From Pseudomonadota bacterium (GTDB taxonomy: Bacteria > Pseudomonadota > Gammaproteobacteria > Steroidobacterales > SZUA-146), in contig JBCCHD010000026.1 in NCBI GenBank assembly GCA_039028935.1, positions 1 to 48,784 on the forward strand: DNA of 48,784 bases. The letters run 5' to 3'. The position numbers and the translations under genes were made by a program. Under the pieces are notes generated by a model, which did no database searches, was not told the DNA's origin, and saw nothing but the letters and a program-made list of their open reading frames with translations. Positions 28,224 to 38,864 of the stretch are shown here, piece after piece (the first letter of the stretch is position 1; the number at the start of each line of letters is the position of its first letter).

Positions 28224-28979
28224 TTATTCTGGCGTCGCGTAGGACCCGGTGCTGGTCAGCACATAGTGACCCTGATTGTCGCGTTGGGCGCCGAGCATGC
28301 CGACGGCCTGGGTGATCGTACCGGGCGTGGTGTTGGTTGGTTGAATTGAGGCTTCGACGCGCCACGATTTATCGTCGCTGAGAATCACATTCCCATTGAG
28401 TTTGAAGACGGCCTCGGTATCGGACATGACGCCATGCACGTCATGCTCGTCGGTGGGTGCAAACACTAATGAAAAACTGCCCAGTTCAGTGTTGCTGAGT
28501 TGCTCGGTGACGCGCGCAAATTGAATTTCGCCTTGCGCCGCCACGACAGCGCCGTTTTTCCACGCCACGTGTTCTAACTGCAAACCGGCTTTGCCCGTTA
28601 ACGCGACGGGCAGTGCGAGCAACTCGCCGACCTGCTCCAGAGGCAGGACCCCTTTTAGATCATCAACAGAGCCGCGACGACCAAACAATCCCTGATTAAT
28701 GTCGGCCTGCAGAGCGCCATCCGGTAATCGGGCGTTAACGCGTGCGCCAGCTTTTAGCAATAGGAGCTTCCAGGGCTTGAGTGACCAGCGTACGTTGGTG
28801 AGCCGCAGCGCCGGCGTTGTGACCGATGCAGCCTCGCCGTTCCATGCCGAGCCGGAGAGGCCGCTGACCGTCGTACCCGGCGGCACCAGCCACCCTGCCG
28901 CGACGCTCGCGGGAAGTTGCACCAACGCAATCAGCGCGTAACACAGCGCTCCAAAAACCAACCAACGACGCCAACTCAC
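28224..28979 (-). CDS. gspN: Type II secretion system protein N
   Basis: A 251-residue protein with one N-terminal membrane segment (WLVFGALCYALIALVQLPAS) and a beta-rich periplasmic part. It shows SGLSGSAWNGEA, VRWSLKPWKLLL and GALQADI, typical of GspN. GspN is an accessory inner-membrane T2SS protein that is missing in many systems. It is the last gene of the gsp operon, 5 bases after gspM, and converges with the AddA-like gene. Confidence 0.87.
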   Translation of the reverse strand: MSWRRWLVFGALCYALIALVQLPASVAAGWLVPPGTTVSGLSGSAWNGEAASVTTPALRLTNVRWSLKPWKLLLLKAGARVNARLPDGALQADINQGLFGRRGSVDDLKGVLPLEQVGELLALPVALTGKAGLQLEHVAWKNGAVVAAQGEIQFARVTEQLSNTELGSFSLVFAPTDEHDVHGVMSDTEAVFKLNGNVILSDDKSWRVEASIQPTNTTPGTITQAVGMLGAQRDNQGHYVLTSTGSYATPE

Positions 28980-28984
28980 AGCGC

Positions 28985-29476
28985 TTATTGACCGACAGAC
29001 TTGGCGAGCGTAACGCTGCCGCTTACGACGCCGGGCGTGTCATCGTCCCGCGTGAGATTGACCGCGTCTACGCCAACACTGTGTTGCGCGTGCAGTTCAC
29101 CAAACCAGCCCATCATCGAGTTAAAACTCGACGCATCGAACTGAACGCGCAGTTTGTTACTGCCAGAGGCGGTGCTGCTGCGTGGAACGAGGTCAAATTT
29201 TTTGGTCGACACATCCACAATAGACAACAGTGAACGATTACTGCCACCTCGAGGCGTGTTGCTCGGCGCCGCACTCGACTGTTTTAAAACGGGCGCAACG
29301 CGCTTCATATACTCAAGGTCTTGCTCGGCGACCGCCACTCGCTCTTTGTATAGCGTAGCGCCTGAGAACAACGGCTCGAGAATGAGAAAGTACAATATTG
29401 CCACGACAATCATGACGCCCATCGCGCTGACCAGTGTGCGTTCTCGGGTTTCGAGCCCTTGCCACCATTCGTTCAT
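28985..29476 (-). CDS. gspM: Type II secretion system protein M
   Basis: A 163-residue bitopic inner-membrane protein: MNEWWQGLETRERTLV at the N-terminus, one membrane helix (AMGVMIVVAILYFLILEPLF), a coiled segment (YKERVAVAEQDLEYMKRVAP) and a small ferredoxin-like periplasmic domain. GspM binds GspL and stabilises it in the assembly platform. Its ATG overlaps the gspL stop by four bases, and gspN follows after 5 bases. Confidence 0.92.
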   Translation of the reverse strand: MNEWWQGLETRERTLVSAMGVMIVVAILYFLILEPLFSGATLYKERVAVAEQDLEYMKRVAPVLKQSSAAPSNTPRGGSNRSLLSIVDVSTKKFDLVPRSSTASGSNKLRVQFDASSFNSMMGWFGELHAQHSVGVDAVNLTRDDDTPGVVSGSVTLAKSVGQ

Positions 29477-30717
29477 GGCTGCCCCCGCTTAAGCTGTACG
29501 CGGCCCTGGACCGTGCTGCCATTGGCTTTGGTTGAGTTGAGGCTGGCGTCTATCGCGTCATTGCTGGCGATCTGAGTGGCAAATCCATCGAGCAGCTGCA
29601 GACTCGGCGCCACGACCTCAAGATCCAAATTGCCGGGGCGGAAACTCATGCGTCGAACATCCAGTCCGGACACGTCCTGCGAGACCGTGGCGACGGTGTG
29701 GATATATTGAAGAAATTCTGAGCCGCCGGTCACGCTGGCGTTGCCGGTATCGCGCATTTCGGCGCGGAACATGCCGGGTGGATCGGGAAAACGCTGCCGA
29801 TTCGGATAGGTTTCTTTCGCGAGTGTCTGCATGGCGGCATTGAGTTCGGACAGGCGAGATTTCATGGCGCTCAGTTCCATGGCCTTGAAACCAACGGTCA
29901 ACGCCATGAAGAGGCCAGCGGCGATCGCCGCGGGCTTCCAGGGTGACAGCATCTTCTCGTAACTGGTCGAGGGCGCATAGTCGCCTTGCAGTAAGTTGGG
30001 CATGGCGGGCGATTGCGCCTCGCCGGCGAGTTTGGTCAACGCACCGTGCGGTAGCCGTCGAAATTCAGCATGCTCGAAGGCTTCATGGATCGCATTGATG
30101 GCACCGTCGCTATGGTCGCTGCCCGCATCATCGAGATACACCGTGATGGGCATCGGCGATTCGTCATCGCGTTGCACTTCGGCCAGTCCGAGCGCATCGA
30201 CCACCGAATCCAGAGCGATGTTCACGGCATCGCCATCGGCGGTGCGCAATGTCGCTTCGCGTGCCTCGACTAATACCGTGCAGCCATCCTCCGTGAGCGG
30301 CAGCGCCGCATCCAGTGGAATCACAATGTTCGGCGTCAGGTTGTGCCCTTCAAGTTTGTCGAGCAGGGTATCCAACAGCGAACGACCCACCGCAGCCACC
30401 GCAAAACGGCCGTCGTCATCCCGCTTGCCGGCACCAAAGTGCAATTCATCGGTACCCGAAATTAAGTGGTCTTCGAAGGAAAAGGGGAGGGCCTGCAAGA
30501 GCTTTTGCGTGCTCTTGAGCGGCAGGCTACTGTGGCCGACCAAGCTATCGTTAGCAGGCAACAGCACGCAGACCTTTCGTAAGTGTGCGGCGGTTGAGGC
30601 GTCCGCCAGCGTGCCATGGGTGATATCGCCAATACGCGTACCGGCGTCATCCACCACCAGCCAACTCGGCTGATCACTGGGGTGGTCAGGAATACGTAAT
30701 ACTAACGTTTCGGGCAT
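29473..30717 (-). CDS. gspL: Type II secretion system protein L
   Basis: A 414-residue inner-membrane protein. The cytoplasmic part (~1-260) has the actin-like fold that binds the GspE ATPase (KLLQALPFSFEDHLI is a family landmark). One membrane helix is at ~263-281 (AAIAAGLFMALTVGFKAME), followed by a periplasmic ferredoxin-like domain. It anchors GspE and pairs with GspM. It starts 51 bases after gspK, the largest internal gap among gspG-N, and overlaps gspM by four bases. gspE itself is not in the window. Confidence 0.93.
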   Translation of the reverse strand: MPETLVLRIPDHPSDQPSWLVVDDAGTRIGDITHGTLADASTAAHLRKVCVLLPANDSLVGHSSLPLKSTQKLLQALPFSFEDHLISGTDELHFGAGKRDDDGRFAVAAVGRSLLDTLLDKLEGHNLTPNIVIPLDAALPLTEDGCTVLVEAREATLRTADGDAVNIALDSVVDALGLAEVQRDDESPMPITVYLDDAGSDHSDGAINAIHEAFEHAEFRRLPHGALTKLAGEAQSPAMPNLLQGDYAPSTSYEKMLSPWKPAAIAAGLFMALTVGFKAMELSAMKSRLSELNAAMQTLAKETYPNRQRFPDPPGMFRAEMRDTGNASVTGGSEFLQYIHTVATVSQDVSGLDVRRMSFRPGNLDLEVVAPSLQLLDGFATQIASNDAIDASLNSTKANGSTVQGRVQLKRGQP

Positions 30718-30768: not shown

Positions 30769-31701
30769 TTATTCGAAGCCAGAGCGGCGGAGGCGGGTCG
30801 CAATGGTGCCATTGCGCTGATCACGTTCCAAAAGACTGTACATGCTGAACTGCGTGGTGCCAAGCGAAACGATCGAATTGACACCAAAATACTCTGAGCT
30901 AACGGTCGCGATGGCAAGCGCCTCTTGCGGCAAAAAGGCACTGACTTGATCGAGCGACTCATAGGGTTCACCGATGCGGTTTTCGGTGATGAGTTGAGCA
31001 TCAAACACCGTGACACCCTCGGCCAACGCCGCCAGCACAGTTTCTTGCGCGGTGTTGACGTTTATCAGCGTCCCACGAGGCAGCGCGGTCACGTGTGGCT
31101 TTAGCGCGAGCCACACCGGTCCTTCGATCCCTTGGACTGTGCGTAATTCTGAGGCATCGGTGAGATAGACGTTGGCGGTTCGGTAGGCGGGCTCTGCGCC
31201 GGTGTAGGCATCGTCTTCGGCGCCGGTGGGGAAGGTCACTTCCACATCCGCATCGATCCAATCCACCACCGCGTCCGCGATTTGCGGATCGATTTCGAGC
31301 AGCATGAGCATGCGCACAAACACGTTGTACCACATCTCATCCTTTTGTCCCGTTTGGGTCACCAAGTTGTTGAGGTTGAATCGGCCCTGCATGTCCTCGA
31401 TGTTGCCGGTGAGCTGTCCACCGTCGATGGGTAATGGTGGTAGAGTCACCGCCCACGCTTCGTCCAGTGAGTCCCACTGTGTCTCCTGAGCATCGATCAA
31501 TAGCGTGTCCGCGACCCATGCTTCAGCACCCAATGCATATTGCCGCGCTTGATCCATGTTGTTGAGATTGCGAGTGCGATGTATTTCTAGGTTAGCGGTC
31601 CAGAGTAGATTGGCGGCAATGGTCACGCCAATCGCCACCACCATCATTGCTGCGAGCATCGCCACACCGTGCTGTTTGCTGGGCAATCGATGACGTCGCA
31701 T
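30769..31701 (-). CDS. gspK: Type II secretion minor pseudopilin GspK
   Basis: A 310-residue prepilin. The short leader ends in QHG, with cleavage expected before VAMLAAMMVVAIG. As in other GspK proteins the Glu at mature position 5 is missing. The large globular domain has MQGRFNLNNLV, IADAVVDWIDAD, YRTANVYLTDASEL and a helix-hairpin-like GTLINVNTAQETVLAALA. GspK caps the pseudopilus tip with GspI and GspJ. Its start overlaps the gspJ end by one base. Confidence 0.94.
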   Translation of the reverse strand: MRRHRLPSKQHGVAMLAAMMVVAIGVTIAANLLWTANLEIHRTRNLNNMDQARQYALGAEAWVADTLLIDAQETQWDSLDEAWAVTLPPLPIDGGQLTGNIEDMQGRFNLNNLVTQTGQKDEMWYNVFVRMLMLLEIDPQIADAVVDWIDADVEVTFPTGAEDDAYTGAEPAYRTANVYLTDASELRTVQGIEGPVWLALKPHVTALPRGTLINVNTAQETVLAALAEGVTVFDAQLITENRIGEPYESLDQVSAFLPQEALAIATVSSEYFGVNSIVSLGTTQFSMYSLLERDQRNGTIATRLRRSGFE

Positions 31702-32321
31702 CAGCTTGCCACCTCGATAATGCGCCGGACGATGCCCATCGTTTCAGATTCGAGCGTCACTTCAATAGCGACTGGCAAATCCTGTAATCCCGCGCCATCG
31801 CGCGACAGTGGCCAGCTTTCCGTCCATTCGAGTTGACGCGTCATAAAACGCACATTCATCGACAAAATGCCCTCGATTAGTTCGCGCCGCACAGGCACCG
31901 AGCCCTGTGTACGATCGAGTACCAGCCAGTGACTACGGTATAGCGTGTCATCTTCGATCTGATAGGCCACTCGCTGTTGCTGGCTGCGCTTGAGGTTGAG
32001 CGTATTGCTGTAACCGCCAACCGTCATTTCGATGCCACCCTCGCTTTCTGCAGTCATTACCGCTGCCAGCTGTCCTTGGCCAACCAGGTCCCGCACCGGC
32101 CGCGGCTGAATCTGTGCCAAATCTCGCGTAATCACTTGCATGGCGATCTGGATTTCTTGTAGCTGTTCAAAGCGCGCTTCAAGTTTTACCCTATTCCTGC
32201 CCGCCTGCGAGATGGCGGTCCAGGCCAGCGCAGTCACGATCGCGAGAAGGCCAACCACGACGACGATTTCGATAAGCGTGAAACCCGCTTGGCGTTGCTT
32301 ATTGAGTATCGGGACTCGCAT
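31701..32321 (-). CDS. gspJ: Type II secretion minor pseudopilin GspJ
   Basis: A 206-residue prepilin with the type IV leader and helix QAG^FTLIEIVVVVGLLAIV (Glu5 present). The globular part shows QIAMQVITRDLAQIQPRPVRD and LLE-type strands typical of GspJ (DDTLYRSHWLVLDR). It forms the tip complex with GspI and GspK. It shares one base with gspI upstream and one with gspK downstream, so translation is tightly coupled. Confidence 0.93.
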   Translation of the reverse strand: MRVPILNKQRQAGFTLIEIVVVVGLLAIVTALAWTAISQAGRNRVKLEARFEQLQEIQIAMQVITRDLAQIQPRPVRDLVGQGQLAAVMTAESEGGIEMTVGGYSNTLNLKRSQQQRVAYQIEDDTLYRSHWLVLDRTQGSVPVRRELIEGILSMNVRFMTRQLEWTESWPLSRDGAGLQDLPVAIEVTLESETMGIVRRIIEVAS

Positions 32322-32848
32322 CAGTTGTCTCGCTCAAGGCCGCGTCGAGGGTCTGGCCGCTGGCCAGGCAGCGGAGGTGTGCCTGGGACGGTGGGCGGCT
32401 GAAGCTGTCCACCGGTGTTGGCATCCGGCCAACCGCTCCACGGGCGCAAATTCGCATCGGGTGTGTTGTTACCCATGAACGCCGACATGGAGTACAGCGA
32501 TTTGTCCGGCGATTCTGCGCGCGCTACCGTGATATCAACACGTCGAATTCCCTCGACCGGTGTTTGACTAATGTCCATTGCCCACCGCCATTCGGCGCCC
32601 GCCATTTCCTCATCACCATCGGAGCGTCCGGTGCTTGGGAGCCCGGGTTTGAGTCGTAGTTCGGTCAGGGCATTCATAGCGACCCATCGTCCGTATGTGA
32701 TCTCCTGAGTGCGTTTAGCCACTTTGGCCGATTGCGACACCTTCATGGAAATGGCCAAGACCGTAATGCTCACAATGCTGAACGCGACCAGCACTTCGAT
32801 TAGCGTGAAGCCCCGTTTGTGGGAAAGAGATTGCGGTCTAAAAGCCAT
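32321..32848 (-). CDS. gspI: Type II secretion minor pseudopilin GspI, with long C-terminal tail
   Basis: A 175-residue prepilin: KRG^FTLIEVLVAFSIVSITV leader and helix (Glu5 present), then WVAMNALTELRLK and AEWRWAMDISQTPVEGIRRV, as in GspI. The family is usually near 120-130 residues. Here a Pro/Gly/Asn-rich tail of about 45 residues follows (DANLRPWSGWPDANTGG, then PPTVPGTPPLPGQRPDPRRG). It overlaps gspH by 11 bases and gspJ by one. Confidence 0.93.
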   Translation of the reverse strand: MAFRPQSLSHKRGFTLIEVLVAFSIVSITVLAISMKVSQSAKVAKRTQEITYGRWVAMNALTELRLKPGLPSTGRSDGDEEMAGAEWRWAMDISQTPVEGIRRVDITVARAESPDKSLYSMSAFMGNNTPDANLRPWSGWPDANTGGQLQPPTVPGTPPLPGQRPDPRRGLERDN

Positions 32849-33392
32849 ATTGAAGCTCGATCAGTTCGCGCGAACTGTCTGGGTGTATCTTAAGATGAAA
32901 GGCGGGTTCCACGTCGTCCATCTCAAAGTACAGGTCGAAGGGCGTAATTTCACCGCTCGCAAGCATGAGCACTTGAGGTGTGGGTACGAACTCCTCGTCT
33001 CCCTCTTCGCTTTCGTCTCGCTCTTCGGGTTCGGGCCACGTGACGGAGTTTTCTTCGATCGCAATTTCCATCCGCATGTTGTCGGGCAACGTGCGTGCGC
33101 GAAACATACGCTCGGTGCTCAGGTCGAGCCAGCGCTGTTGGGTCAAGTCGTAAAGATAAAACTGGTAGCCATTGTCTTCGACTACCATGCCGATATCGCG
33201 GCCCTGCAATAGCGCTTGCTCTGAGGCCAGTCGAACCAAGGCATTCATGCGACGAGCTTCTTCTTTCAGCGCTTTTTTGCCCCCTGCTTGGATATTCAAG
33301 GCGAACACGGCGGTCAATACGGTGATGATCAATAACACCACCGACACTTCAATCAGTGTGAAACCGTACTCGCGTGAAGGAGAACGACGCAT
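32838..33392 (-). CDS. gspH: Type II secretion minor pseudopilin GspH
   Basis: A 184-residue prepilin: EYG^FTLIEVSVVLLIITVLT leader and helix, then ALKEEARRMNALVRLASEQA and DIGMVVEDNGYQFYLYD, the usual GspH beta sandwich. An acidic loop, EPEERDESEEGDEE (~residues 120-133), is inserted. GspH connects the tip complex to the GspG shaft. It lies 17 bases after gspG and overlaps gspI. Confidence 0.93.
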   Translation of the reverse strand: MRRSPSREYGFTLIEVSVVLLIITVLTAVFALNIQAGGKKALKEEARRMNALVRLASEQALLQGRDIGMVVEDNGYQFYLYDLTQQRWLDLSTERMFRARTLPDNMRMEIAIEENSVTWPEPEERDESEEGDEEFVPTPQVLMLASGEITPFDLYFEMDDVEPAFHLKIHPDSSRELIELQYGF

Positions 33393-33409: not shown

Positions 33410-33868
33410 TTATTCCCAGCTGCCGATATCGAGGTCAGCACCTTCGCCGCCGGGCGCGCCGTCGCGTCCATACGAGAAGATGTCGTACTCACCGCCTTGT
33501 TGGCCCGGCGAGAGGTAAATGTAGTCGCGACCCCACGGGTCCTTGATGTTGTTCTTGCGAAGGTACCCACCTTCTGGATACGCGGTAAGATCCGGCGACG
33601 GTGAGGAGATGAGCGCCTGTAAGCCCTGATCCGTTGTCGGATAACTGAAATTGTCCAGTTGATACATATCCAACGCACTCGACAGTGCTGCCAAATCGGT
33701 GCGCACTTTCTGTTGTTGGGCGGGCACACGGCGGTTGAGTACATTCGGTGCGATCATCGCGGCCATGATGCCGAGAATCACGATAACCACCATGACTTCC
33801 AACAAGGTAAATCCCCGGGCTCGATGGGAAGCGGCGGCGATGCGGTATGAGGCGGTCGATGCATTCAT
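33410..33868 (-). CDS. gspG: Type II secretion major pseudopilin GspG
   Basis: A 152-residue prepilin with RARG^FTLLEVMVVIVILGIMA (Glu5 present), YPTTDQGLQALI, IKDPWGRDYIYLSPG and the C-terminal calcium-binding region FSYGRDGAPGGEGADLDIGSW. This is the canonical major subunit that builds the pseudopilus shaft. AAAGGACATCACAC precedes the ATG. A second gspG-like gene lies 294 bases upstream, and gspH follows after 17 bases. Confidence 0.95.
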   Translation of the reverse strand: MNASTASYRIAAASHRARGFTLLEVMVVIVILGIMAAMIAPNVLNRRVPAQQQKVRTDLAALSSALDMYQLDNFSYPTTDQGLQALISSPSPDLTAYPEGGYLRKNNIKDPWGRDYIYLSPGQQGGEYDIFSYGRDGAPGGEGADLDIGSWE

Positions 33869-34162
33869 GTGTGATGTCCTTTCATCCGTTCAGTTTGTGC
33901 GTGGTGGATTAGCATGACGCGAACACTGCTGTTTTGGAGTGTCTCTCGTCGCAATAATTCCCGTCATTTTAGCAGAAATTGCAGCGTTTCCCGCAGAGTC
34001 GAGCACAAAATCAATGTCCCATCTGAGCGCGCACGACGCGTAGGCATTCCGACCAGCGGCGGCGGCCGTCGGCCCGGAACGACCTGATTGCTCGGTGCGG
34101 ACAGGACCGGGCAATCCACCATCAAACACCGGATCGGTGGGTGTGCGTGAAGACGTAAGGTG
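33869..34162. other. Intergenic region between the two gspG genes, with hairpins
   Basis: No convincing gene is found in 294 bases. On the minus strand TGCCCGGT and ACCGAGCA (ends 34113 and 34089) form an 8-pair stem with one mismatch, and CACCGATCCGGTG (34127-34139) can form a short 5-pair stem just after the gspG2 stop. These may stabilise or partly stop the transcript so that the two GspG proteins are made at different levels. A TAAAAT near 33965-33970 (minus strand) could be a -10 for gspG. Confidence 0.4.
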
Positions 34163-34630
34163 TTACCGGTGTTGAATATCCTCGTCTGGGCCTTCCCCTC
34201 CGGCGGCGCCGTCGCGCCCCATCGACATGAGTTCAAAGGGCGCATCGACGCCTGGGCGACGATAAACATAATGCTGTCCCCATGGGTCAACAAGGTCTTC
34301 GTGTTCGAGATAGCCATACTCAGGATAAGCGCCCGGTAACGCGACGGGCGCTTCAATGAGCGCCTGAAGGCCTTCCTCGTTGGTTGGCAGGCGTCCGTGA
34401 TTGAGTTGAAAGAGCTGGAGCTGGGAGGCGATCGTATTGAGATTCGTGGTCGCCGCCTGCACCCGGGCCTGCTCGGTTTGCCAGAAAAGTTTGGGCGCAA
34501 CGAGCGCGGCCATGATCCCTATGATGACCATCACGACCATGACCTCGATCAGCGTAAATCCACGTGGTGACCGGGCATTCCATCGGTTGGCCGGGGCTGT
34601 AGCGTCCACCAGTGAGTACGGGTTCTGCAT
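34163..34630 (-). CDS. Second GspG-like major pseudopilin
   Basis: The start is ATG 34628-34630, with GAGGAG 7 bases upstream; 155 residues. It has an unusually long leader before SPRG^FTLIEVMVVMVIIGIMA, then LPTNEEGLQALIEAP, LVDPWGQHYVYRRPG and MSMGRDGAAGGEGPDEDI, so the calcium-site region is kept. It ends in QHR instead of the usual DIxSW. It is a true paralogue of gspG (33410-33868), not a minor pseudopilin. It is the first gene of the gsp operon and diverges from the rhombosortase gene, 81 bases between starts. Confidence 0.9.
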   Translation of the reverse strand: MQNPYSLVDATAPANRWNARSPRGFTLIEVMVVMVIIGIMAALVAPKLFWQTEQARVQAATTNLNTIASQLQLFQLNHGRLPTNEEGLQALIEAPVALPGAYPEYGYLEHEDLVDPWGQHYVYRRPGVDAPFELMSMGRDGAAGGEGPDEDIQHR

Positions 34631-34711
34631 TTTGCAACTCCTCGTCATTGTTGTGACTCCCTGGCGGGGTTCGATAGACTAGACGACAAAAGATTCCCGT
34701 GAAGGCTTTGC

Positions 34712-35335
34712 ATGATCGATTCTGTGGGTACGCGACGTCTCCGTATTTGGTTGCTTCCAACCGTGATCTCGCTCGTGTCGCTGGTGTTTGCGCTGGGAGA
34801 AACCGAGTGGCGCGAGTTGTTGCGCTACGACCGCGATCAATTAGCCGAACACCAAGTATGGCGTTGGCTCAGCGCCCATCTTGTGCATTTGAGTTGGTCT
34901 CACCTGTGGCTTAATTTGGCCGGGTTGTGGGTGGTGTGGTGGTTGTTTAGCGAACGTTTTTCCATTGCCGTGGGGATGTGGATTGTGGTGTGCTCGATCG
35001 TCGTCATGGACCTTGGGTTTTGGTTTCGCGACACCCAATTGGGGTGGTATGTGGGTCTGTCGGGCGTTTTGCATGGACTCTTCGCGGCCGGCGCACTGGA
35101 TGAATTTTGGCGGGGTGTTCGTGGCGGTGTATGGCTACTGCTCGGTATCACCACCAAGTTGGCTTACGAGCAAGCGTTTGGCGCGTTGCCTATGACGGCT
35201 GAAACAAGCGGTGGCCCCGTATGGGTCAATTCGCATCTGTACGGCGCGATCGGTGGCCTGTTAGCGGCGATTGCGTGGAATCGGCGCCAACCGTTTACGC
35301 CAGCCGCTGGGCTGCGTATATTTTCTCGCTCTTAG
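34712..35335 (+). CDS. rrtA: Rhombosortase (rhomboid-family intramembrane serine protease)
   Basis: A 207-residue membrane protein with about six helices. Rhomboid motifs are present: HLSWSHLWLNLAG (59-71), the catalytic serine in WYVGLSGVLHGLF (Ser117 in GLSG) and the catalytic His175 in WVNSHLYGAIGG. The short core and the GLSGxLHG form match rhombosortases, which cut proteins carrying a C-terminal GlyGly-CTERM tail, many of them T2SS substrates. It lies divergent to the gsp operon, which fits that role. GAAGG at 34701-34705 precedes the ATG. fabD starts 21 bases later. The rhombosortase call rather than a general rhomboid is strong but rests on motif form. Confidence 0.85.
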   Translation: MIDSVGTRRLRIWLLPTVISLVSLVFALGETEWRELLRYDRDQLAEHQVWRWLSAHLVHLSWSHLWLNLAGLWVVWWLFSERFSIAVGMWIVVCSIVVMDLGFWFRDTQLGWYVGLSGVLHGLFAAGALDEFWRGVRGGVWLLLGITTKLAYEQAFGALPMTAETSGGPVWVNSHLYGAIGGLLAAIAWNRRQPFTPAAGLRIFSRS

Positions 35336-35356: not shown

Positions 35357-36289
35357 ATGACGTTTGCAATGGTCTTTCCCGGTCAGGGTTCGCAGGCCGT
35401 CGGTATGCTGAGCGAGATGCATGAACAGGCGCCCATCGTTACCACGCTGTTTGAAGAGGCGTCGCACGTGTTGGGTTATGACCTGTGGCAAACGGTCGCT
35501 GAGGGACCGGCCGAGACACTCAATCAAACACGCGTCACTCAACCAGCCATATTGACCGCAAGCGTTGCGCTATGGCGTCTATTTTGCGCGCGAACGGAGC
35601 TCAGGCCGTCTGTGATGGCGGGGCATAGCCTCGGTGAATACAGCGCGCTTGTTTGTGCCGATGTGGTGCCGTTTGATGAAGCGGTTGCGCTGGTGGCCAC
35701 GCGCGGCGAACTTATGCAAGAGGCGGTTCCTGAAGGTGAAGGCGCCATGAGTGTTGTGCTCGGCTTAGAAGATGAGGTCATTATCGATGTGTGCCGACAC
35801 GCGGCGCAGGGCCAAGTGGTCGAGGCGGTAAACTTCAACGCGCCGGGTCAAGTAGTGATTGCGGGTAACGCTGCGGCCGTGGAACGGGCAGGGGCGGCGG
35901 CAAAAGAAGCCGGCGCGCGACGCGTTCAACCCTTGCCGGTGAGCGTGCCCGCACACAGTTCATTGATGAGGGCGGCAGCCGAACGATTTGCCGATACGCT
36001 TGCCACCACAACCATTGGCGAGGGACGTATTCCTGTTTTGCACAATGTGGGGGTGGATGAAGTGAGTGATACGCGCACTGCGCTCGTTGAACAGTTGTAT
36101 AGTCCCGTGCCTTGGACGCGCATTGTGCAAACCATGTCCGACCGCGGTGTCGAGACGCTGATGGAGTGTGGGCCTGGCAAGGTGTTGTGCGGCTTGGCCA
36201 GGCGCATCGATAGGGCCGTGTCCACCTTTCCGTTGCATACGCCAGATACGCTGGCGACCGCAATCGATCATCTCACGTCAACCGGTTGA
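35357..36289 (+). CDS. fabD: Malonyl-CoA:ACP transacylase
   Basis: A 310-residue protein that moves malonyl from CoA to ACP for fatty-acid elongation. It begins TFAMVFPGQGSQAVGM and has the active-site serine in GHSLGEYSALV and the catalytic His in PVSVPAHSSLM. NFNAPGQVVIAG and LMECGPGKVL complete the fold. In most relatives plsX and fabH come before fabD; here the rhombosortase gene does. fabG follows 36 bases later. Confidence 0.97.
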   Translation: MTFAMVFPGQGSQAVGMLSEMHEQAPIVTTLFEEASHVLGYDLWQTVAEGPAETLNQTRVTQPAILTASVALWRLFCARTELRPSVMAGHSLGEYSALVCADVVPFDEAVALVATRGELMQEAVPEGEGAMSVVLGLEDEVIIDVCRHAAQGQVVEAVNFNAPGQVVIAGNAAAVERAGAAAKEAGARRVQPLPVSVPAHSSLMRAAAERFADTLATTTIGEGRIPVLHNVGVDEVSDTRTALVEQLYSPVPWTRIVQTMSDRGVETLMECGPGKVLCGLARRIDRAVSTFPLHTPDTLATAIDHLTSTG

Positions 36290-36325: not shown

Positions 36326-37078
36326 ATGAATTTGGATCTCGAATCGAAAGTGGCGCTGGTGACCGGCGCCAGTCGCGGCATTGGCGGCGCGATTGCCGAT
36401 CGACTGGCTGAGTGCGGCGCGACCGTAATCGGAACGGCCACGACCGAGGCGGGTGCCGAGGCAATCAGTGCCCGATTTGACGAGGCTGGGTATCGTGGAT
36501 GTCGCGGTGCAGCGCTCAATGTGACGGAACCCGAACAAGTCGATGGCTTGCTTAAAGGGCTTGCGGCGATCGATCTCACTCCTGACATTTTGGTCAATAA
36601 CGCTGGAATAACGCGCGATATGTTGCTCATGCGCATGCAGGAAGAGGCGTGGGCGAGCGTCATCGATACGAATCTCACCGCGATTTTTCGACTTTCCAAA
36701 GCCGTGATGCGCGGCATGATGAAGGCGCGCTTCGGGCGAATTATTAGTATCGGTTCGGTGGTGGGCACCATGGGGAATCCCGGTCAGGCCAACTACGCGG
36801 CGGCCAAAGCTGGTCTCATCGGCTTTACCAAGGCGCTCGCTCAGGAGGTGGGAACGCGTGGAATCACTGTAAATACGGTTTCCCCAGGCTTTATTCAAAC
36901 CGATATGACGGCCGCTTTGAGTGAGTCTCAACGACTGGAACTGGAGGGCAAAATTCCGCTTGGTCGACTCGGCCATGGCGACGACATAGCGGCTGCGGTG
37001 GCGTTTCTTGCATCGGACTTGGCGTCGTACATCACGGGGGAAACGCTGCACGTCAACGGCGGTATGCACATGGCTTGA
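36326..37078 (+). CDS. fabG: 3-oxoacyl-ACP reductase
   Basis: A 250-residue short-chain dehydrogenase. The NADPH-binding motif VTGASRGIGGAI is at the start, NNAGITRD in the middle, catalytic Ser in IISIGSVVGTMG and YAAAK, and the FabG-typical end YITGETLHVNGGMHMA. It reduces 3-oxoacyl-ACP to 3-hydroxyacyl-ACP. The start has AGGAGCTTGGA upstream. It lies between fabD and acpP as in E. coli. Confidence 0.97.
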   Translation: MNLDLESKVALVTGASRGIGGAIADRLAECGATVIGTATTEAGAEAISARFDEAGYRGCRGAALNVTEPEQVDGLLKGLAAIDLTPDILVNNAGITRDMLLMRMQEEAWASVIDTNLTAIFRLSKAVMRGMMKARFGRIISIGSVVGTMGNPGQANYAAAKAGLIGFTKALAQEVGTRGITVNTVSPGFIQTDMTAALSESQRLELEGKIPLGRLGHGDDIAAAVAFLASDLASYITGETLHVNGGMHMA

Positions 37079-37178: not shown

Positions 37179-37412
37179 ATGAGTATAGAAACACGGGTCA
37201 TCAAGATTGTGGCCGATCAGCTGGGTGTTAAAGAAGACACTGTGAAACCCGATTCGTCGTTTGTCGACGATCTGGGCGCTGATTCACTCGATACAGTTGA
37301 GTTGGTAATGGCACTTGAAGAGGAATTCGAGTGCGAGATTCCGGACGAAGAGGCGGAAAAAATCACCAACGTGCAGCTGGCCATCGACTACATCAATAAC
37401 CATCAGGACTGA
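37179..37412 (+). CDS. acpP: Acyl carrier protein
   Basis: A 77-residue, strongly acidic protein of exact AcpP length. The phosphopantetheine-attachment serine is in [19 protein letters not shown]. It carries the growing acyl chain for fatty-acid and lipid A synthesis. GAGAGGAAACG precedes the ATG. A 100-base leader with a possible promoter lies upstream, and a terminator-like hairpin (37482-37524) follows. Confidence 0.97.
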
Positions 37413-37619: not shown

Positions 37620-38864
37620 GTGTCTAAACGTCGCGTAGTTATTACAGGAATGGGTACTGTGTCGCCGGTCGGAAACACAGTAAGCGAAGCATGGTCCAAT
37701 GTCGTCGCGGGTCATAGCGGTATTGGGCCAATCACGCGTTTTGATGTCAGTGCATTTCCCACGCGCATCGGTGGGGAAGTACGCGAATTCGAGCCCGCTG
37801 ACTATATCGATCGCAAACAGGTGCGAAAGACCGATCCGTTTATTCACTACGGCGTGGCGGCTTCCAAACAAGCTTGGGACGATTCTGGCCTGTCCGTCGA
37901 GCAGACGGATCCTGCTCGAATCGGGGTCGCTGTCGGCGCGGGTATTGGCGGCATCAGCACAATTGAAACGAACCACCAAAAATACCTCGGTGCGAATTCG
38001 CCTAAGCGCATTTCGCCGTTTTTTATTCCTGGCAGCATCATCAACATGGTGTCCGGCCAGGTCAGTATCGATCTAGGGTTGCGCGGACCCAATTTTGCCA
38101 TTGTGACCGCCTGTACCACCGCCACGCATAATATTGGATATGCCGCGCGATCGATCGCGTATGGTGACGCCGATGCCATGATTGCTGGCGGTGCGGAAAT
38201 GGCGACGAGCCCGCTGGGTCTTGGCGGCTTTTGTTCCGCCAAAGCCATGTCAACCCGTAACGATGAGCCCGAAAAAGCTAGCCGGCCGTGGGATGAGGAG
38301 CGGGATGGCTTTGTGCTGGGTGACGGGGCTGGGGTGTTGGTGCTGGAAGAGTATGAACACGCCAAAGCACGCGGTGCCAATCTCTATGCCGAGTTGATCG
38401 GGTTTGGCGCGAGCGGCGACGCGTTTCATATCACGGCGCCAATCGAAGACGGCTCGGGTGCGGCACTGTGTATGGATAACGCCATCCGCGACGCCGGCAT
38501 AGATCCGACGGCAGTCGACTACGTGAATGCCCATGGCACCTCCACGCCACTGGGGGATCGTGCCGAGACACTCGCGATCCGACGATCTTTTGGCGCGCAC
38601 GCCGACCGCTTGCTCGTCAGTTCAACCAAATCGGTGACCGGTCATTTATTGGGTGCAGCAGGTGGTGTGGAGGCGATTTATTCAATCATGGCGCTACGCG
38701 ATCAGGTAGTGCCGCCCACGATGAATCTGGAGACGCCTGGAGAAGGCTGCGATCTTGATTACGTGCCAAACAACGCGCGCGAAGCGGCGTTGAGTGTGGC
38801 GATCAGCAATTCGTTCGGCTTTGGCGGCACGAACGGTACCCTTGTGTTTGCGCGTGTCGTCTGA
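37620..38864 (+). CDS. fabF: 3-oxoacyl-ACP synthase II
   Basis: A 414-residue condensing enzyme that elongates acyl-ACP with malonyl-ACP. The start is GTG in AAGGGTGTGTCTAAACG. The Cys-His-His triad is visible in [12 protein letters not shown] (Cys), [11 protein letters not shown] (His) and [13 protein letters not shown] (His), with [11 protein letters not shown] near the end. Length and motifs match FabF. pabB overlaps its 3' end by about 11 bases. Confidence 0.97.

What the first reader, a model, noticed from the sequence alone, without database searches (positions are those of the whole stretch)
34163..35335. Rhombosortase gene divergent to a T2SS operon
The 207-residue rhomboid protein has the GLSGVLHG form of rhombosortases and lies 81 bases from the first gene of a gsp operon. 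Rhombosortases trim GlyGly-CTERM proteins, which are largely T2SS cargo (Haft and Varghese; later Vibrio work). Direct linkage of protease and secretion genes suggests one regulatory unit for making, trimming and exporting surface enzymes. No GlyGly-CTERM substrate is in this window.
Basis: partly seen in the sequence, partly recalled or inferred. Interest (0 to 1): 0.6.

Follow-up and report, generated by a model that had tools for sequence, protein, structure and literature searches.

The report
Rhombosortase gene tied to type-II secretion
A bacterial protease that trims and helps anchor surface proteins has its gene next to the genes of the machine thought to export them, and this pairing recurs in many relatives, suggesting that trimming and export work as one pathway.

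Summary
Confirmed. ORF 34712-35335 (+) is a rhombosortase: TIGR03902 143 bits (cut-off 84), GlpG models about 25 bits. It is divergent to gspG-N and 21 bp upstream of fabD-fabG-acpP-fabF. GlyGly-CTERM-like tails lie on other contigs of the genome. The linkage is not local: gsp genes flank rhombosortase divergently in 59 of 60 sampled order genomes, 54 of 80 named contigs and 35 of 83 class-wide genomes examined (partly overlapping samples). Beyond rhombosortase the neighbour varies: fab genes, gspF (so that it lies inside the T2SS cluster) or unrelated genes. Against a strong reading, in the order the T2SS-fab junction persists where rhombosortase is absent (14 of 14 readable); such genomes have fewer GlyGly-CTERM hits (6 of 40 against 22 of 40). 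Among GspL-positive class genomes, GspN occurs in 86 of 91 with rhombosortase and 40 of 76 without. GspN is reported to serve lipoprotein export, so I propose that it shields the lipid on rhombosortase products. 'One regulatory unit' is not shown. A known enzyme family, in a conserved linkage that my searches of the held papers did not find described.

The parts
34712..35335 (+). rhombosortase (rhomboid-family intramembrane serine protease), 207 aa; Ser117 and His175 as catalytic pair, His121 as rhombosortase signature
   Evidence: TIGR03902 143.2 bits, cut-off 84; PF01694 44.2 bits; the three residues are invariant in 17 aligned sequences, the window's included; AF2 model pLDDT 89.9, best PDB matches GlpG
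34163..34648 (-). gspG copy 1 (extra major pseudopilin; probable start 34630)
   Evidence: TIGR01710 138.7 bits, cut-off 88.85; 49% identical to copy 2; no second gspG over 60 bits in any of 220 loci scanned, 146 of them gsp-linked
33410..33868 (-). gspG copy 2 (canonical major pseudopilin)
   Evidence: TIGR01710 163.9 bits; 65% identical to the GspG of same-genus G002, copy 1 48%
32838..33392 (-). gspH
   Evidence: TIGR01708 100.9 bits, cut-off 80
32321..32848 (-). gspI
   Evidence: TIGR01707 78.6 bits, cut-off 44.35
31701..32321 (-). gspJ
   Evidence: TIGR01711 109.3 bits, cut-off 64.85
30769..31701 (-). gspK
   Evidence: NF037980 268.6 bits, cut-off 130
29473..30717 (-). gspL
   Evidence: TIGR01709 197.5 bits, cut-off 65
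28985..29476 (-). gspM
   Evidence: PF04612 107.3 bits, cut-off 27.8; no NCBIfam hit
28224..28979 (-). gspN (N-terminal helix plus long beta strands in the model)
   Evidence: PF01203 111.4 bits, cut-off 29.6; no NCBIfam hit; AF2 pLDDT 94.1
34649..34711 (.). 63-bp divergent intergenic region (81 bp counted from the start at 34630)
   Evidence: sequence; no sigma-70-like site found in it
35357..36289 (+). fabD, co-directional, 21 bp after the rhombosortase stop
   Evidence: TIGR00128 357.9 bits, cut-off 260.9
36326..37078 (+). fabG
   Evidence: NF004197 378.2 bits, cut-off 332
37179..37412 (+). acpP-like acyl carrier protein ORF
   Evidence: 77-aa ORF; named by eye from its sequence, no HMM run
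37620..38864 (+). fabF
   Evidence: TIGR03150 645.7 bits, cut-off 493.75

Best explanation
This is the protease of a GlyGly-CTERM surface-anchoring pathway whose gene is linked to the secretion genes of the same pathway. [quoted passage not shown] (2) the rhombosortase, by Ser117/His175, cuts within the glycine motif; [quoted passage not shown] (4) the T2SS moves the cargo to the cell surface, GspN perhaps shielding the lipid. Shown here: family membership, catalytic residues, candidate substrates in the genome, linkage and co-occurrence. Steps 1-3 and T2SS dependence are inferred from V. cholerae RssP/VesB (PMC6219818, abstract and passages). The GspN step is my hypothesis. Shared regulation is not shown.
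For: TIGR03902 143.2 bits against 25.7 and 24.9 for the two GlpG models. One such gene in the genome; its three other rhomboids score 30-47 bits. Of 7 GlyGly-CTERM hits at E <= 10, 5 are over the cut-off (E 0.018-0.235); 4 of those 5, plus 1 weaker hit, sit at true C-termini. Gsp genes divergent next to rhombosortase: 59 of 60 order loci, 54 of 80 named contigs, 33 of 80 class loci, and gspG in 29 of the 30 best order loci; with G000, G007 and G534 counted, 35 of 83 examined of the 94 class genomes that have it. In 9 of the 35 gspF lies on the other side within 2.5 kb, directly adjacent in 7. 91 of 94 rhombosortase-positive class genomes have GspL, and 86 of these 91 have GspN, against 40 of 76 GspL-positive genomes without rhombosortase. 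GlyGly-CTERM hits (E <= 0.3) in 22 of 40 order genomes with the gene and 6 of 40 without.
Against: In the order the gspG-fab junction stays where rhombosortase is absent (14 of 14 readable of 16 fetched), so linkage there is partly inherited order. In same-genus G001 another ORF lies upstream of rhombosortase up to the contig end, and its gspJ-N contig ends at gspJ, so linkage there is broken or cannot be read. 48 of 83 class genomes examined are unlinked. In whole-protein hmmscan only 1 of the 5 candidate substrates passes the TIGR03501 cut-off, and one passes a MYXO-CTERM model (TIGR03382, 17.1 bits, cut-off 15.85); 11 of 14 control genomes ring with TIGR03501 at E <= 10, 1 over the cut-off. 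18 of the 40 tested rhombosortase-positive genomes show no GlyGly-CTERM hit. None of the co-occurrence tests corrects for shared ancestry.
Confidence: 0.82

Rival explanations
1. Inherited gene order: the gene has its usual rhombosortase function, but its place beside gspG and the fab genes is a frozen ancestral order without functional meaning.
For: T2SS-fab junction kept without rhombosortase in 14 of 14 readable order loci; order plus window genus is not rejected as one clade in the rhombosortase tree; linkage is clustered on the class tree, 16 changes against a shuffled mean of 26.2, and one origin of it is not ruled out.
Against: Class-wide the gene beyond rhombosortase varies while the gspG side stays: fab genes in 13, gspF in 9, others in 13 of 35 linked genomes, the others including recG, chorismate lyase, macro, MscS and cytochrome c genes.
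Confidence: 0.35
2. A shared divergent promoter makes rhombosortase and the T2SS one regulatory unit.
For: 63-81 bp between start codons; short gaps in most linked loci too, with unrefined start codons.
Against: No sigma-70-like site in the gap; rhombosortase leads into the fab genes; in 7 class loci it lies antisense directly between gspF and gspG; V. cholerae rssP reported constitutive (passage of PMC11389362).
Confidence: 0.2
3. A general rhomboid of GlpG type with no tie to GlyGly-CTERM or T2SS.
For: Rhomboid fold; GlpG is the nearest solved structure.
Against: GlpG models 25.7 and 24.9 bits against cut-offs of 250 and 335, TIGR03902 143.2 against 84; His121 where GlpG has Tyr205 (position as given in PMC3237569).
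Confidence: 0.02

Closest known systems
Rhombosortase / GlyGly-CTERM system (TIGR03902, TIGR03501; Haft and Varghese 2011, PMC3237569)
   Same: HMM membership, SGxLH signature, one rhombosortase per genome with several candidate targets encoded away from it; co-distribution with T2SS genes is noted there.
   Different: That paper reports linkage to single target genes and states it was unable to find evidence that rhombosortase marks any subclass of T2SS (passages). Here the gene is beside or inside T2SS clusters in many genomes.
Vibrio cholerae RssP and VesB (PMC6219818, PMC11389362, PMC13393428)
   Same: Same enzyme family; T2SS-dependent export of GlyGly-CTERM cargo to the surface is the model used here.
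   Different: Linkage of rssP to the eps genes is not mentioned in the passages I saw; no biochemistry exists for the window's organism in what I read.
GspN-dependent lipoprotein export by T2SS (Acinetobacter, PMC12802150)
   Same: The window operon ends in gspN, with an N-terminal helix and long beta strands in the model.
   Different: Shown there for N-terminally acylated lipoproteins; a role for C-terminally modified rhombosortase products is my proposal. The passages on VesB and EpsN that I saw describe no test with VesB.
Myxosortase / MYXO-CTERM (PMC11980579, start of abstract in a search listing only)
   Same: Intramembrane protease with a tripartite C-terminal tag; 4 of the 5 candidate proteins also hit MYXO-CTERM models, 1 of them over a cut-off.
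   Different: The MYXO-CTERM motif holds an invariant Cys; the glycine motifs of the five tails have none.

Membership tests
Rhombosortase (TIGR03902) | HMM score over the curated cut-off and far above GlpG models | tested here: met
   143.2 bits, cut-off 84; GlpG models 25.7 and 24.9
Rhombosortase (TIGR03902) | SGxLH with His in place of the GlpG Tyr205; WRxxS/T; HxxGxxxG with catalytic His | tested here: met
   S117-G-V-L-H121, W50-R-W-L-S54, H175xxG178xxxG182; motifs as described in PMC3237569
Rhombosortase (TIGR03902) | GlyGly-CTERM proteins in the same genome | tested here: met
   4 hits over the cut-off at true C-termini in a six-frame search, 1 more below it; only 1 of these 5 passes in whole-protein hmmscan
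Rhombosortase (TIGR03902) | cleaves the tag; product joined to a glycerophosphoethanolamine-containing moiety | not testable with these tools
   reported for V. cholerae VesB (PMC6219818, abstract and passages)
Type II secretion system | pseudopilins G-K, L, M, plus C, D, E, F in the genome | tested here: met
   G-N in the window; C, D, E, F in a row on G000:C13
Type II secretion system | secretes GlyGly-CTERM cargo in this organism | not testable with these tools
   needs mutants
GlpG rhomboid | score over the GlpG cut-offs | tested here: not met
   25.7 of 250 and 24.9 of 335 bits
MYXO-CTERM targets | Cys in the signature motif of the tail | tested here: not met
   no Cys in the five glycine motifs, although TIGR03382 gives 17.1 bits (cut-off 15.85) for the 678-aa protein

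The most novel reading that the evidence does not exclude
Rhombosortase and GspN are two parts of one lipid-anchoring branch of the T2SS: rhombosortase puts a phospholipid on the cargo's C-terminus and GspN shields it during export, as it is thought to do for N-terminal lipoproteins. The conserved linkage marks T2SS loci specialised for C-terminally lipidated surface proteins, and in this organism that cargo includes an HvfA-type metal-binding RiPP.
Probability: 0.3. Interest if true: 0.75.

Novelty: new member of a known kind. Interest (0 to 1): 0.5.

Why it matters
It was unclear why bacteria make a membrane-anchoring tail only to cut it off, and whether rhombosortase belongs to any particular T2SS. 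The linkage, with rhombosortase sitting between gspF and gspG in some genomes, and the near-nesting of rhombosortase within GspN-positive T2SS genomes turn this into direct tests: does GspN carry rhombosortase products, and can linked loci be used to find surface-anchored cargo in uncultured bacteria?

Tried and rejected
Replacement of the window genus's rhombosortase by one from an unlinked lineage: a FastTree tree of 193 rows (15 divergent class loci, short frames and duplicates left out) placed it with unlinked sequences, and so did the 81-row class tree, which held no other order sequence. A tree of 57 hand-picked rows with a mixture model placed it inside the order, and the order-plus-window clade was not rejected (p-AU 0.709). 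Dropped.

GspN fold: no significant PDB match for the model (best E 0.19, ApoB100), so a beta-taco fold rests on the strand pattern and on PMC12802150.

Shared promoter: nothing found in the intergenic region.

Internal TIGR03501 hits at G000:C20:14004 (over the cut-off) and C30:12369 (below it) are not C-terminal and were left out.

GspN association: I could not correct for ancestry. In the 9 class families that I found by eye where two GspL-positive genomes differ in rhombosortase, GspN is the same in both (present in 7, absent in 2), so the association is deep and not a recent co-loss. In the order, the 9 family f12 genomes listed have GspL but neither GspN nor rhombosortase.

Samples. The 80 class loci (28 pre-selected as linked from gspL coordinates, 52 of the other 66) are no random draw; of the 14 others, G000, G007 and G534 were already held (they make 83) and 11 (6 at contig ends, 5 second members of a family) were not looked at. 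The 60 order loci were picked by family among the matches printed, which lists the better-scoring ones only. The 40 plus 40 genomes were hand-matched by family and completeness; one of the 40 positives, G154 (E 2.4e-18), is probably below the rhombosortase cut-off. Order presence was counted at E <= 1e-15: 214 of 296, 212 over the cut-off. Named, order and class loci overlap in part: one search shows identical proteins.

Full report
What is there. The window is one whole contig (C26) of a 4.1-Mb, 91-contig genome. ORF 34712-35335 (+) scores 143.2 bits with the rhombosortase model (cut-off 84) and about 25 bits with two GlpG models. It has Ser117, His121 and His175, all invariant in 17 aligned sequences, the window's included. 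Its AF2 model (pLDDT 89.9) matches GlpG best among solved structures. On the other strand run gspG, a second gspG, gspH, I, J, K, L, M and N. gspC-D-E-F lie in a row on contig C13, so the T2SS is split. Downstream of rhombosortase, 21 bp away, comes fabD, then fabG, an acpP-like ORF and fabF.

Substrates. TIGR03501 finds 7 places at E <= 10 in the genome, 5 over the cut-off; 11 of 14 control genomes also ring at that loose limit, 1 over the cut-off. Inspection of the frames leaves five proteins whose match ends 1-13 residues before the stop and which, judged by eye, begin with a signal-peptide-like stretch: 208, 678, 1355, 2812 and 2718 aa, the last below the cut-off. In whole-protein hmmscan only the 208-aa protein passes (15.7, cut-off 15.5); the 678-aa one gives 13.0 and the other three no TIGR03501 row. 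Domains fit surface proteins: choice-of-anchor U (two), choice-of-anchor Q with beta helix and TSP3, DUF4347 with Ig-like repeats. The 208-aa protein is an HvfA-family RiPP metallophore (NF050137 100.9 bits, cut-off 19.5; NF050188 79.5, below its cut-off of 95). A term search inside two papers on this family finds no mention of CTERM tags or sortases.

Linkage. With gspG, H or I divergent within 900 bp as the rule: 54 of 80 named contigs (44 with fab genes downstream, 9 with neither fab nor gspF in view, 1 with gspF), 59 of 60 genomes of the order, and 33 of 80 class loci. An earlier look at the 30 best order loci found gspG in 29; the other ends at a contig end. These samples overlap in part. 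For the class sample of 274 genomes, 94 have rhombosortase over the cut-off. Listed coordinates put gspL 3.6-4.8 kb away (5.3 kb in the window) in 30 of them; reading the loci adds 5, so 35 of 83 examined are linked. Of the 35, 13 have fab genes downstream within 1.1 kb, 9 have gspF within 2.5 kb on the opposite strand (directly adjacent in 7; in L279 and L313, of one genus, other ORFs lie between), and 13 have other genes. In the 7 adjacent cases rhombosortase is antisense between gspF and gspG, confirmed by Pfam for L262 and L265. In G448 it reads in the same direction as gspG, just upstream. Named linked contigs include records titled Woeseiaceae, Steroidobacteraceae, Granulosicoccaceae, Ectothiorhodospiraceae and Chromatiales.

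Results that cut the other way. In order genomes without rhombosortase, gspG directly faces fabD (13) or fabG (1) in all 14 loci where the junction can be read, of 16 fetched; the other two end too early. So T2SS-fab order survives without the protease. In G001, of the same genus, the rhombosortase-fabD pair is kept, but another ORF runs upstream to the contig end, and the contig with gspJ-N ends at gspJ, so linkage there is broken or unreadable. 48 of 83 class genomes examined are unlinked.

Co-occurrence. Class: 91 of 94 rhombosortase genomes have GspL. Among 167 GspL-positive genomes, GspN is present in 86 of 91 with rhombosortase and 40 of 76 without (Fisher p 3e-10). Order: 273 of 296 have GspL; GspN in 207 of 212 with and 49 of 61 without (p 1.5e-5). 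All 35 linked class genomes have GspN, which is partly expected, since gspN usually ends the same cluster. These p-values ignore shared ancestry. Substrates: at E <= 0.3, 22 of 40 rhombosortase-positive order genomes have a GlyGly-CTERM hit (40 hits) against 6 of 40 negative ones (6 hits), p 3e-4; over the cut-off 21 against 5; 1 of 14 control genomes rings. The genomes were hand-matched by family and completeness.

Mechanism. V. cholerae RssP cuts VesB to expose the second Gly, this is joined to a glycerophosphoethanolamine-containing moiety, and the T2SS carries the protein to the surface (PMC6219818, abstract and passages). GspN is needed for lipoprotein export by the Acinetobacter T2SS but not for a soluble substrate (PMC12802150, abstract and passages). 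Joining these with the co-occurrence above, I propose that GspN also serves rhombosortase products. The model of the window's GspN has an N-terminal helix and long strands, but no significant PDB match.

Literature. Haft and Varghese 2011 (PMC3237569; [quoted passage not shown] PMC13393428 (passage) repeats the co-distribution. Searches for rhombosortase, rhomboid+gspG+operon, GlyGly-CTERM, type II secretion+fabD+gspG (none found), GspN+rhombosortase, four terms with Woeseia and rhombosortase+operon+type II secretion listed no paper whose title or abstract start describes the physical linkage or the GspN association. I saw passages of nine of the listed papers on rhombosortase or T2SS and of two on RiPPs, none in full. 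Most subscription journals are not held, so absence from print is not shown.

Verdict. An ordinary member of a known enzyme family, in a linkage that is conserved, not found described in the searches named, and useful for a testable idea about GspN.

Noticed in passing
L016:1227-1853 (G000:C21:44226-44852, +): A 208-aa HvfA-family (EGKCG-repeat) RiPP metallophore that ends in a GlyGly-CTERM tail, which would make a metal-binding RiPP a rhombosortase substrate. The three neighbours scanned by Pfam are not RiPP-modifying enzymes; the rest of the genome was not searched for one.
   Followed up: partly
window 33410-34648: Two tandem gspG genes, 49% identical; the copy next to rhombosortase is the divergent one. 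No second gspG over 60 bits in any of 220 loci scanned, 146 of them gsp-linked.
   Followed up: partly
L330 (G448:C36): Rhombosortase in the same direction as and just upstream of gspG-H-I-J, the only such case seen among the 80 class loci; GspL was not detected in that genome.
   Followed up: no
L017 (G000:C20:14004) and L020 (G000:C30:12369): GlyGly-CTERM-like stretches inside long frames, followed by an OmpA-like C-terminus (3106-aa frame) or a barrel-like C-terminus (1180 aa); these names are by eye, no HMM run.
   Followed up: no
L250 (G534:C44): Rhombosortase on the same contig as the T2SS, about 7 kb beyond gspN and not next to gspG.
   Followed up: no
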